DNA of 64,000 nucleotides from an uncultured Oceanospirillaceae bacterium (GTDB lineage: Bacteria > Pseudomonadota > Gammaproteobacteria > Pseudomonadales > Balneatricaceae): the NCBI GenBank assembly GCA_913057435.1, contig CAJXNY010000025.1, positions 17,387-81,386 on the forward strand, written 5' to 3'. Positions 18,853-64,000 of the stretch are shown in pieces (the stretch's first letter is position 1; each line of letters starts with the position of its first letter). The translations under genes were made by a program, and so were the position numbers. The notes under the pieces were generated by a model. The model was not told where the DNA came from. It was given only the letters and a program-made list of their open reading frames with translations, and did not search any database.

Positions 18853-19880
18853 CTCAAATCCTCCGGTCGGAAAGTAATATTGAACGTACGATAAAATCGC
18901 TCAAATGCGATCGGGTCAAGTTGCTGAAGCTCAGAGAAACGCTCAGCCCGACGCACCGCATTCTCAGCATCGGCATCAAAACGACTATCTCCACTGGAGC
19001 GGGCAACATACACATTATCGACCTCACCGGTCGATAACAGTTGCACGGTAATTGTTACCTGCATCCCATTGCGCGCTGTCGCAGAGCGACGCCAGTTACG
19101 GGTAATCAGATCACGTATGTAACCTTCAAAGCTGGCAGCGGCCTGCTCACGATCAGCATCACGAGCAGCGGCTTCTTCAGCAGCGGCAGCCTCTGCAGCA
19201 GCAACCAGTGCGCTTTCACGCGCTTGCCGGGCCTTCTCTGCTTTCTGACGAGCAAGCTCTGCCTGACGCTTACGCTCAGCCTCAGATTTTTTCCGTTCCG
19301 CTTCCTTTCTGGCCAGCGCCTGCTGCTGCTTTTTATCCGTTTCAGCCTTACGCTTCTTCGCCAGCTCTGCATCCTGCTTGCGTTTACGCTCATCAGCTAC
19401 TTTACGCTGTTTGTCAGCCTCGGCTTTTTTCTTCGCAACAATAGCCTGCTGCCGCTTTTTCTCCGCTGCCTTTTTCTTCGCTACTTCCTGCTTACGCTTT
19501 TTCTCGGCGACCGCTTTCTTCTTCGCTATCGCCTGCTTACGCCTAGCCTCGTCGGCCGATTTTTTCTTTGCCGCCAGCGCCTTTTTCTCAGCCTGTTTGC
19601 GTTTGTACGCATCCGATTTTTTCTGTTTTGCCAGCGCATCCTGACGCTTTTTCTCAGCTTTGCGCTGGGCATCATTTTTCTTACGCGCTTCATCGGCTTT
19701 ACGCACGTTGTCTTTTTTAGCGTTATACGCTTTAAGGTCAACCATTTGCGCCTGTACATGGCGCGGCACACTCTTATGCTCTTTTTCCTGTTCGAACCAG
19801 GTATGAGACATCAAAAAGAGCACACCGCCATGGAGCACCAGAGCCAGTAAAGCGGGGACGATATAACTGCGCCACTGCAT
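18846..19880 (-). CDS. tolA: Cell envelope integrity inner membrane protein TolA
   Basis: TolA is the energy-transmitting rod of the Tol system. The 344-residue product has one N-terminal membrane helix ([17 protein letters not shown]), a very long Lys/Ala/Arg/Glu-rich helical stalk (about residues 50-245), and the TolA C-terminal domain that binds TolB and colicins ([41 protein letters not shown]). The stalk is compositionally biased, and its antisense strand therefore contains a long Phe/Leu-rich open frame that is not a gene. Confidence 0.96.
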
Positions 19881-49093: not shown

Positions 49094-50130
49094 CAGCTCG
49101 CTCCCCGCTGGCGTGCTGCCAGCCACAGAAAACAGGGCGCACCGATCAGTGCCGTTACCAGCCCAACCGGCGTTTCTGCCGGAAATACCAGTAATCGGGA
49201 CAGCAGATCAGCCCAGACCATCAGCGCTGCGCCCAGCACCGCCACCAGCGGCAATAACACCCGATGATCCGATCCCACCAGCGCCCGTCCCAGATGGGGT
49301 ACCAGTAAACCGACAAACGCAATCGGCCCGGTTACCGCCACCGAGGTCGCCGCCAGGATCACCACCAGCAGGGACGCCTGCAACCGGAGCCGACGGGGGG
49401 ATACACCCAGGCCCGCAGCCATCTCCTCACCCAGCGCCAGCAGGTTTAACGGTTGTGCCAGCCACAGCGTCGCCAGGCCCGCGGGCAGCACCCAGGGCCA
49501 CAATTGCTGCCAGTGATGCCAGTCGGCATCCACCAGCGAGCCACTCAGCCAGTCCACCACCGCCTGGGCCTGTTCATCCAGAATCAGCAGACTGCGGGTC
49601 ATGGCAGTCAGCAATGCGGTAACCGCAACCCCGGCCAGCACCACCCGCACCGGATGAATACGGCCCTGCAAACCGCCACCAAGCATCAAGACCAGCCCAC
49701 CCGCCAGGGCCGCTCCCAGCGCTGTCGCCAGCATCAATGGCAACGGAACCGGCAACAGCCCGGTTTGCACCAGCACCAGCAGGCAACCGGCCCCGGCGTT
49801 CAAACCAAACAGCGCGGGCGAGGCCAGAGGATTACGGGTAATGCCCTGCATCAGCGTGCCCGCCAGCGCCAGCGCCGCGCCGACGGTCGCCGCAATTAAC
49901 ACACGGGGTAAGCGAATGGTCAGCACCAGCTGTGCCGCCAGGTTCTGGGCATCACCCAGCACCAGCTGTGCCGCCAGGTTCTGGGCATCACCCAGCACAG
50001 CGTTGAACAGATCAGTCAGCGTGAGGGCAAACGTCGAGCCACCGATGGCCGCACTGGCAATGCCCGCCAGCAACACAAGTAACAAACAGGGGGTCACAAT
50101 CAACGGAGATAAAGGCTGAGATAAGCGCAC
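49093..50130 (-). CDS. Ferric-siderophore ABC transporter permease (FecC-like) with internal 12-residue duplication
   Basis: The 345-residue FecCD permease carries LTIRLPRVLIAATVGAALALAGTLMQGITRNPLASPALFGLNAGAG and FVGLLVPHLGRALVGSDHR. Residues 46-57 and 58-69 are an exact repeat of LGDAQNLAAQLV, encoded by an exact 36-base tandem repeat, just before the RLPR motif. The copy lengthens the periplasmic loop ahead of TM2. The start is GTG 50130, which overlaps the substrate-binding protein's stop by one base (TAGTG). Confidence 0.9.
   Translation of the reverse strand: MRLSQPLSPLIVTPCLLLVLLAGIASAAIGGSTFALTLTDLFNAVLGDAQNLAAQLVLGDAQNLAAQLVLTIRLPRVLIAATVGAALALAGTLMQGITRNPLASPALFGLNAGAGCLLVLVQTGLLPVPLPLMLATALGAALAGGLVLMLGGGLQGRIHPVRVVLAGVAVTALLTAMTRSLLILDEQAQAVVDWLSGSLVDADWHHWQQLWPWVLPAGLATLWLAQPLNLLALGEEMAAGLGVSPRRLRLQASLLVVILAATSVAVTGPIAFVGLLVPHLGRALVGSDHRVLLPLVAVLGAALMVWADLLSRLLVFPAETPVGLVTALIGAPCFLWLAARQRGAS
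49921..49992 (-). repeat. 36-bp exact tandem duplication in the FecC-like gene
   Basis: Two identical 36-base units lie head to tail (49921-49956 and 49957-49992), followed by the first 6 bases of a third. The unit is a multiple of three, so the reading frame is kept. Perfect identity suggests a recent or unstable event. Confidence 0.98.
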
Positions 50131-59363: not shown

Positions 59364-59642
59364 TCAGTTATTACTGGCAATGCTTTGAACGGCAACAACC
59401 CTGCAGACAGCGCGCCCATCACTGAAGCCATGCTTCCAGATCAGGTGATGGGCACACCACTTCGCGGTATTCTCATCCAGCATGTTCACATGCAATACAA
59501 CCGCTGCGCCATACCCCTGTACCCAGCACCGTCCCCGGCTCAACGCATACTGCTTTAACCAGCACTCAATCACTTCATCATCAAGCAGGCTTACCTGCTC
59601 TCGACGGGCGCGGGTCATCACACTCTCCTGAAACGTGACGCC
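59364..59642 (-). pseudogene. Internally deleted RAYT relic (right flank of the AT-rich block)
   Basis: A minus-strand frame keeps three pieces of the RAYT at 62754-63743: the N terminus MTRARREQVSLLD, a middle fragment DEVIECWL and the C-terminal LKQYALSRGRCWVQG. Two internal deletions join them. The first lies exactly between two TTAACC hexamers of the intact gene (62828-62833 and 63455-63460); the second joins short ATC-like matches near 63483 and 63705. The catalytic HxH motif is lost, so it cannot transpose itself. Only 59491-59642 shows homology; 59364-59490 does not align. Confidence 0.85.
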
Positions 59643-62753: not shown

Positions 62754-63743
62754 TCAGCTGCAATACAACCGCTGCGCCTGGCCCATGCCCTGCACCCAGC
62801 GCCGCCCCTGATTCAGCGCATACTGCTTTAACCGGGCTACAGAGCCCACCGCCTGCTGAAACCGCAGCCCTGCCGGTAACATCGTTCGCTGCCACTGCTG
62901 CGGGTCAATAAACAGACGCTGTAAAATCGGCGGCGTACGTTCAGAGATATAACCCCGTTTATCCTCACGCTGGCAGCGCCCGGTCCAGTCCACCAGCTCC
63001 AGATAATCGGCCAGTGCAAACGGCACAGCATGATTATCAATATCCTGCTGTGCCGCCGAGAGTGATTGCAGTACCGGTTTAACAGCATCAGACTCAACTG
63101 ACGCTGCCGTCTCCTCCACCCGCTGCTGAACCGAGGTGTAATCCGACGCTTCAGGCGTTGCCGCCAGCCCTGCCCGTAACGGGTTCAGATCCACATAGGC
63201 CATACAGGTCAGCAAAGCCTGCTCATCCAGCAGGGCCTGGCACTTAAACCGCCCTTCCCAGAACCGCCCTGTACAGCCATCCTCCTGATTGGCCTGACGA
63301 GCAATGTGCTCATTCAGGCAACGCATAAACCAGCTCAGATCACTCAACCGCTCGCGCCAGTCAGCAACAATCTCAACCATCTTCGCCCGTTCGGATTCAG
63401 TTAGTTCCTCTTCGAGCTGGTGACGACGAATCAGCGGCGGGCCACTGAACAGGGTTAACCAGCGCTTGATCACTTCATCATCCGTCCAGCCATCCGCCCG
63501 AGTTTCATGCACATGCAGCACCAGATGGTAATGGTTCGACATAATCGCGTAGGCCGCAATATCAATGGCGAACACATCCGCCAACAGCGCCAGCCGCTCG
63601 ACAATCCACTGGCGACGATGCTCAAAGCAATGCCCGCTCTGGGCATCCTGACCGCATAGAAAAGCACGGCGAACACAACGGGAAATACAGTGGTAATACG
63701 GGGTATCCAGCAGGCTCACCTGCTCTCGACGGGCGCGGGTCAT
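62754..63743 (-). CDS. REP-associated tyrosine transposase (RAYT, Y1 HUH nuclease)
   Basis: The 329-residue protein is a RAYT of the Y1 HUH superfamily, single-strand transposases that mobilise REP sequences. It opens MTRARREQVSLLDTPYYHCISR, has the HUH signature MSNHYHLVLHV (HYH) near residue 81, NEHIARQANQEDGCTGRFWEGRFKCQALLDE, and AYVDLNPLRAGL with the likely catalytic tyrosine. ATG 63743 has AGGAG 6 bases upstream. Repeat copy D flanks its upstream end. It is the likely source of the relics at 56308 and 59364. Confidence 0.92.
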   Translation of the reverse strand: MTRARREQVSLLDTPYYHCISRCVRRAFLCGQDAQSGHCFEHRRQWIVERLALLADVFAIDIAAYAIMSNHYHLVLHVHETRADGWTDDEVIKRWLTLFSGPPLIRRHQLEEELTESERAKMVEIVADWRERLSDLSWFMRCLNEHIARQANQEDGCTGRFWEGRFKCQALLDEQALLTCMAYVDLNPLRAGLAATPEASDYTSVQQRVEETAASVESDAVKPVLQSLSAAQQDIDNHAVPFALADYLELVDWTGRCQREDKRGYISERTPPILQRLFIDPQQWQRTMLPAGLRFQQAVGSVARLKQYALNQGRRWVQGMGQAQRLYCS

Positions 63744-63785: not shown

Positions 63786-63834
63786 CAAGCAGTGTAGAAG
63801 TCAGTTCAGGAAGATGCCAATTGTGTGGATGTCC

Positions 63835-63925
63835 TTTTCTTTATTTCTATTTTCTTTATTTCTTTATTTCTTTATTTCTTTATTTCTTTATTTCCTTATT
63901 TCCTTTCTGCCTTTCTTTCTGCTTA
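63835..63925. repeat. Low-complexity CTTTATTT octamer repeat
   Basis: Five perfect CTTTATTT units (63854-63893) flanked by degenerate T/C-rich units fill this stretch. It follows the RAYT end and precedes the adapter sequence. It could be real simple-sequence DNA or an assembly artefact at the contig end. 63786-63834 shows nothing else. Confidence 0.9.
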
Positions 63926-63950
63926 GGTAGCAATTCAGGGAGAGCTATTT

Positions 63951-64000
63951 CTGTCTCTTATACACATCTGACGCTGCCGACGAAGAGGATAGTGTAGATC
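63951..64000 (+). other. Nextera library adapter, not genomic DNA
   Basis: 63951-63969 is the Tn5 mosaic end CTGTCTCTTATACACATCT, 63970-63983 is the Nextera read-2 adapter GACGCTGCCGACGA, 63984-63991 is AGAGGATA (the complement of index S503, TATCCTCT) and 63992-64000 begins the P5 primer GTGTAGATC. This is read-through into the library adapter at the contig edge. Confidence 0.98.

What the first reader, a model, noticed from the sequence alone, without database searches (positions are those of the whole stretch)
63951..64000. Contig ends in Nextera adapter plus an i5 index
The last 50 bases match the Tn5 mosaic end, the read-2 adapter, an 8-base index equal to the complement of S503, and the start of P5. 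The database sequence therefore contains library contamination, and neighbouring low-complexity DNA should be treated with care.
Basis: partly seen in the sequence, partly recalled or inferred. Interest (0 to 1): 0.75.

Follow-up and report, generated by a model that had tools for sequence, protein, structure and literature searches.

The report
Sequencing adapter at a contig end
The last 50 bases of this bacterial contig match a laboratory sequencing adapter (Nextera, index S503) letter for letter rather than genome; they likely came in through untrimmed reads, as at 41 other contig ends of the same assembly, and should be cut off before the sequence is used.

Summary
Confirmed artefact. Window 63951-64000 equals, base for base, Tn5 mosaic end + complement of the Nextera i5 arm + complement of index S503 + first 9 bases of P5's complement. 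The window's end is the end of contig C25. Of the assembly's 154 contig ends, 42 carry such a tail, pointing outward, and no copy is internal: 17 i5 and 25 i7, fitting one index pair (S503 + N710). The bases before the 42 junctions follow the Tn5 target consensus as a group (0 of 2000 controls reach it), so DNA up to 63950 is likely the end of a real tagmented fragment. Two corrections: the arm is the i5/read-1 one (the i7/read-2 arm matches 3 of 15 bases), and the neighbouring octamer array is likely genuine, the upstream region of a multicopy transposase-like gene. Side result: translated adapter gives a false protein tail, VSYTHLTLPTKRIV, which ends 11 of 12 protein hits found with the frame crossing this junction.

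The parts
63951..63969 (+). Tn5 mosaic end, reverse complement
   Evidence: exact single match in the window, 0.01 expected
63970..63983 (+). reverse complement of the Nextera i5-side (read-1) adapter arm
   Evidence: exact match to the expected chain; i7/read-2 arm matches 3 of 15
63984..63991 (+). AGAGGATA, reverse complement of i5 index S503 (TATCCTCT)
   Evidence: exact; index table in PMC7589761
63992..64000 (+). GTGTAGATC, reverse complement of the 3' end of P5
   Evidence: exact
63942..63950 (+). last 9 genomic bases before the junction, the place of the Tn5 target site
   Evidence: Tn5 target bias shown for the 42 junctions as a group, 0 of 2000 controls; not testable for one junction
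63836..63902 (+). TTTCTTTA octamer array on the genomic side, upstream of the transposase-like gene; neighbour, likely genuine
   Evidence: array; related upstream sequence at several relatives; array found only here in the genome
62754..63743 (-). RAYT-like transposase gene, multicopy in this genome; neighbour, not part of the artefact
   Evidence: NCBIfam REP_Tyr_transpos 45.1 bits, below its cut-off of 80; near full-length relatives at 74-81% DNA identity
63821..63997 (+). spurious 58-codon reading frame that runs from the array into the adapter and ends VSYTHLTLPTKRIV

Best explanation
Window 63951-64000 is the reverse complement of the Nextera read-1 (i5) adapter with index S503, and it was likely carried into the assembly by untrimmed read-2 sequences that ran off the end of short tagmented fragments. 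Shown: the letters, the contig end, tails fitting one index pair on 42 of 154 ends, and the Tn5 target bias of the junctions as a group. Inferred: a k=55 de Bruijn assembler (exact 55-base overlaps among contig ends) followed these reads where no longer genomic path existed, so the tail could not be removed as a side branch. It stopped when the adapter k-mers merged with those of other fragments, which fits the longest tail of 52 bases, just under 55.
For: Exact 50-base identity with the expected chain. Contig end. 42 mosaic ends in the assembly, searched at up to 1 mismatch and all exact, control pattern 0; they are the 42 tailed ends of the 154-end census, so none is internal. 17 i5 and 25 i7 tails fit one index pair, at most 1 mismatch per 15 bases allowed. 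Indices seen directly in the 30 of 42 loci that fetched: AGAGGATA in 10 of 12 i5 loci (2 end before the index), CGAGGCTG in 17 of 18 i7 loci (1 ends inside it). Tn5 consensus GNTYWRANC at the 42 junctions: mean score 3.88 of 7 against 2.45 (sd 0.19), 0 of 2000 controls as high; consensus as quoted in PMC8224930 (passages). Exact 55-base shared suffixes in 27 pairs of non-adapter ends. C18_L and C40_L share a terminal 55-mer made of 6 genomic and 49 adapter bases. Nextera XT inserts shorter than a read: PMC3906532 (abstract and section list). Adapter at contig ends of public assemblies: PMC11536531 (parts 1-2 of 3).
Against: No raw reads were available, so read-through is inferred. 16 of 42 tails, among them 7 i5 tails of 41-44 bases, are shorter than the k-mer merging account predicts. 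The consensus base at position -7 is not enriched (9 of 42), though PMC8224930 gives a slightly different motif, GTNYWRNAC, for the kit enzyme. Only 7 of 42 adapter ends share 21 bases or more with another contig end, and two of those matches are not dovetails, so a coverage gap is not shown for most ends, this one included. Assembler and k are inferred from overlaps only.
Confidence: 0.98

Rival explanations
1. The tail is a genuine Tn5/IS50 end inserted in the bacterial chromosome.
For: The 19-base mosaic end is a Tn5 transposase substrate (recalled; present exactly).
Against: It is followed by synthetic arm, index and P5; 42 of 42 copies lie within 52 bases of a contig end; two different arms with kit indices occur.
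Confidence: 0.003
2. The tail is a chimeric join made later, for example in scaffolding or by a foreign contaminant, rather than read-through.
For: Raw reads were not seen.
Against: Junctions sit at Tn5-type cut sites as a group, the tails point outward and none lies between two genomic pieces, and both arms occur in the form expected at the far end of an insert.
Confidence: 0.01
3. The genome is a bin from metagenome run SRR3933179, whose bins carry the same index pair.
For: SRR3933179 contig ends held here show i7 CGAGGCTG (7 ends) and i5 AGAGGATA (64 ends); the four other SRR3933 runs with a full i7 index visible, one end each, have different ones.
Against: 0 of 78 SRR3933179 ends share a terminal 55-mer with the 42 ends of this genome, and the commonest tail lengths differ. 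An index pair is reused by many laboratories (recalled).
Confidence: 0.2

Closest known systems
Adapter contamination at contig ends of public microbial assemblies (Moeller et al. 2024, PMC11536531)
   Same: Adapter concentrated at contig ends and oriented outward, in isolates and metagenome bins (parts 1-2 of 3 read)
   Different: That survey counted the TruSeq universal adapter AGATCGGAAGAG; this is the Nextera/Tn5 adapter, and the 13-base pattern AGATCGGAAGAGC occurs 0 times in this assembly
Nextera XT short-insert read-through (Turner 2014, PMC3906532)
   Same: Insert shorter than the read leaves adapter at the read end (abstract)
   Different: There in reads; here persisted into an assembly

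Membership tests
Nextera adapter read-through contamination | 19-base mosaic end followed by i5 or i7 arm | tested here: met
Nextera adapter read-through contamination | kit index followed by P5/P7 complement | tested here: met
   S503 and P5 here; index table
Nextera adapter read-through contamination | at contig ends, outward, one index pair across the assembly | tested here: met
   42 of 154 ends; indices read directly in 27 of 30 fetched loci
Nextera adapter read-through contamination | junction at a Tn5 target site | tested here: met
   group test over 42 junctions; one consensus position (-7) not enriched
Nextera adapter read-through contamination | raw reads carry the junction | not testable with these tools
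   no raw reads held
REP-associated tyrosine transposase (neighbour gene) | score above the curated cut-off of the family model | tested here: not met
   NCBIfam NF047646 45.1 bits against 80; Pfam Y1_Tnp 16.9 against 23. Hence RAYT-like only

The most novel reading that the evidence does not exclude
Untrimmed Nextera adapters leave a false, barcode-bearing protein tail in protein databases: VSYTHLTLPT followed by residues that spell the i5 index (KRIV for S503 and KLEV for S515 seen; NREV for S502 and others predicted). Unrelated proteins thus seem to share a conserved C-terminal motif, and the library index can be read back from the protein alone, so that contaminated entries could be found and traced without any DNA.
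Probability: 0.6. Interest if true: 0.35.

Novelty: not a real feature. Interest (0 to 1): 0.15.

Why it matters
The 50 bases, and the tails on 41 other contig ends, should be trimmed before annotation or comparison. Parts of the same adapter match 28 of 50,697 phage records (6 over at least 80% of the 50 bases), some under annotated features (15 of 28 listed). The translated adapter ends all 12 proteins that the frame crossing this junction found in the protein collection, 11 with the S503 residues. Such tails can pose as conserved motifs and as false similarity between unrelated records.

Tried and rejected
Genuine transposon end: rejected (no internal copy, index and P5 present). Assignment to run SRR3933179: index pair fits, terminal 55-mers do not; left open. 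The octamer array as artefact: judged likely genuine. TruSeq adapter in the assembly: 0 matches to a 13-base pattern. Complete E. coli genomes: no megablast match to the 50 bases in 20,395 records. A paper naming SRR3933179: none in the library. Papers with translated adapter peptides: of 5 papers found, none holds sythltlpt or ytsdaade; all hold 'mcird' only, and by titles and abstract starts look unrelated. One search, with Nextera as a fourth term, listed 5 of 27,369 papers, each with 0 peptide occurrences. Two searches for adapter papers gave listings that I did not open. Pfam for the neighbour gene read from its TTG: no hit at 0.001; from its ATG: sub-threshold. Solved structures for it: nothing convincing (best E 0.51).

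In the end census, 60 of 112 non-adapter ends had neither a shared suffix nor a dovetail of 15 bases or more; by eye many are tRNA, rRNA-flank or tandem-repeat ends, not tested.

Full report
OBSERVATION. The last 50 bases of the window are identical to mosaic end + complement of the i5-side arm + complement of S503 + complement of P5, cut at 50. The mosaic end occurs once in the window at up to 3 mismatches, with 0.01 expected and 1 of 100 shuffles holding a match. The window is C25:17387-81386 of an assembly with 77 contigs and 4,760,818 bases, and C25 is 81,386 bases long, so the window ends at a contig end. The two arms appear as forward and reverse primer tails in PMC12502524 (passages); which read each serves is recalled. 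The index table in PMC7589761 (passages) lists S503 as TATCCTCT and N710 as CGAGGCTG; only the index sequences of that table were used.

WHOLE ASSEMBLY. The mosaic end, sought at up to 1 mismatch, occurs 42 times, all exact (20 forward, 22 reverse; control 0). I took 300 bases from each of the 154 contig ends. 42 ends carry a tail, 17 i5 and 25 i7, 19 to 52 bases long; none of the other 112 ends shows a tail of even 5 bases by the same test, and the equal counts leave no internal copy. One search fetched loci for 30 of the 42: 12 are i5 and 18 are i7. Where the index is fully included it is AGAGGATA (10 of 12) or CGAGGCTG (17 of 18); the remaining three end before or inside it. The other 12 ends were matched to the same two chains with at most one mismatch per 15 bases. 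One dual-indexed library explains them.

JUNCTIONS. The 9 bases before the 42 junctions fit the Tn5 target consensus GNTYWRANC (quoted in PMC8224930, passages) with mean score 3.88 of 7, against 2.45 (sd 0.19) for random places in the same ends, 0 of 2000 controls reaching it. Position -7 alone shows no enrichment (9 of 42); the same paper gives GTNYWRNAC for the kit enzymes. So the genomic sides are, as a group, ends of real tagmented fragments. A single junction such as this one proves nothing alone.

WHY THE TAIL SURVIVED (inferred). Non-adapter ends share suffixes of exactly 55 bases in 27 pairs, and 8 of 10 dovetail entries are exactly 55, which points to a de Bruijn graph with k=55. Tails do not exceed 52 bases. 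C18_L and C40_L share a terminal 55-mer of 6 genomic and 49 adapter bases, and no terminal match of 56 bases exists among these 42 ends or with the 158 adapter ends of the 120 metagenome-bin loci. This is expected if a contig stops where its adapter k-mer is shared with another fragment. 26 of 42 tails leave 3 to 7 genomic bases in the last 55; the other 16, with an i5 cluster at 41-44 bases, are not explained by this and may be simple read ends. Of the 42 adapter ends, 7 share at least 21 bases with another contig end: C32_L/C62_L and C56_L/C76_R dovetail over about 46 and 45 bases, C46_R dovetails with the untailed C19_R over about 33, and two others (C29_L, C33_R) match away from the end, like repeats. 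In the dovetails the overlap is below k, which suggests lack of coverage. The end of C25 has no such partner, so for it a coverage gap is inference.

NEIGHBOURING LOW-COMPLEXITY DNA. The TTTCTTTA array (63836-63902) lies on the genomic side, upstream of a transposase-like gene (62754-63743, minus) with near full-length relatives at C53, C1, C28 and C59 (74-81% identity). Upstream of the C53 copy, and at the end of C51, the sequence reads GAAATACAGGGACACCCAC where this copy has repeated GAAATAAA and then GGACATCCAC; C1 and C28 have related versions (ATACGGGGACACCCAT, GAACGGGGACATCCAT) and a relic in C19 has AAAATAAAGGCCACCCAC; the C59 and C2 copies lack it (read by eye). The array is thus likely a slipped version of an upstream region common in this family. 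A 24-base unit of it at up to 3 mismatches occurs only here in the genome (5 overlapping hits; the backwards control hit 4 times). Its longest exact period-8 run is 44 bases and no 41-mer repeats in the last 500 bases, so a k of 55 should not have collapsed it.

HOW COMMON. In a phylum sample, 6 of 398 genomes, this one included, hold an exact mosaic end; the other five hold one or two each, and whether those lie at contig ends was not checked. A scan of genome contigs for mosaic end + i5 + S503 gave 120 stretches and stopped at its limit; 110 of 120 are bins of SRR3933 runs. SRR3933179 bins show the same index pair, but 0 of 78 of their ends share a terminal 55-mer with this genome; the one end from SRR9109403 does, by only 4 genomic bases, which chance can give. 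The source run stays unknown. Phage records: 28 of 50,697 match, 6 over at least 80% of the query. Complete E. coli assemblies: none in 20,395 records. The kind of artefact is in print: Moeller et al. 2024 (PMC11536531, parts 1 and 2 of 3) report adapter at contig ends in MGnify genomes, counting the TruSeq adapter, of which a 13-base form is absent here.

PROTEIN CONSEQUENCE. A 58-codon frame crosses the junction and ends VSYTHLTLPTKRIV. A protein search with it gave 12 proteins at E up to 10 among 115 candidates, all weak (best 0.028). The query carries the tail, so hits were bound to favour it; still, 11 of 12 end in exactly those 14 residues and the twelfth in VSYTHLTLPTKLEV. Their other parts look unrelated: of 10 scanned, one passes a Pfam cut-off (PgpA), three have only sub-threshold matches to different families and six have none. 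Translating the adapter with each of ten indices shows that the residues after LPT depend on the i5 index: KRIV is S503, KLEV is S515 (index recalled). No paper in the held library contains sythltlpt or ytsdaade; this does not show that it is unreported elsewhere.

VERDICT. The finding is right and the feature is an artefact. Trim 63951-64000, and treat the other 41 ends the same way.

Noticed in passing
63821-63997 (+): Spurious frame into the adapter; its tail VSYTHLTLPTKRIV ends 11 of 12 database proteins found, and the last residues encode the i5 index.
   Followed up: partly
62754-63743 (-): RAYT-like transposase gene with four near full-length relatives in the genome, two of them within 1 kb of a contig end; below family cut-offs.
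   Followed up: partly
59491-59642: Looks like an internally deleted copy of the same gene: 3' end (59491-59560, 80%) next to 5' end (59580-59642, 97%), as in a MITE-like derivative.
   Followed up: partly
63836-63902: Octamer array found only at this copy; several relatives have a short, unexpanded version such as GAAATACAGGGACACCCAC upstream, two lack it.
   Followed up: partly
G000 contig ends C32_L/C62_L, C56_L/C76_R, C46_R/C19_R: Contig ends that dovetail over about 33-46 genomic bases at the adapter junction, shorter than the inferred k.
   Followed up: partly
49921-49998: Perfect 36-base tandem repeat, 2.2 copies.
   Followed up: no
19444-19568: 45-base imperfect tandem repeat inside a long reading frame.
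   Followed up: no
phage records LR597643.1 and MK373775.1: Adapter matches of 90-92% identity lie under features annotated as hypothetical protein or tail fibre in the listing.
   Followed up: no
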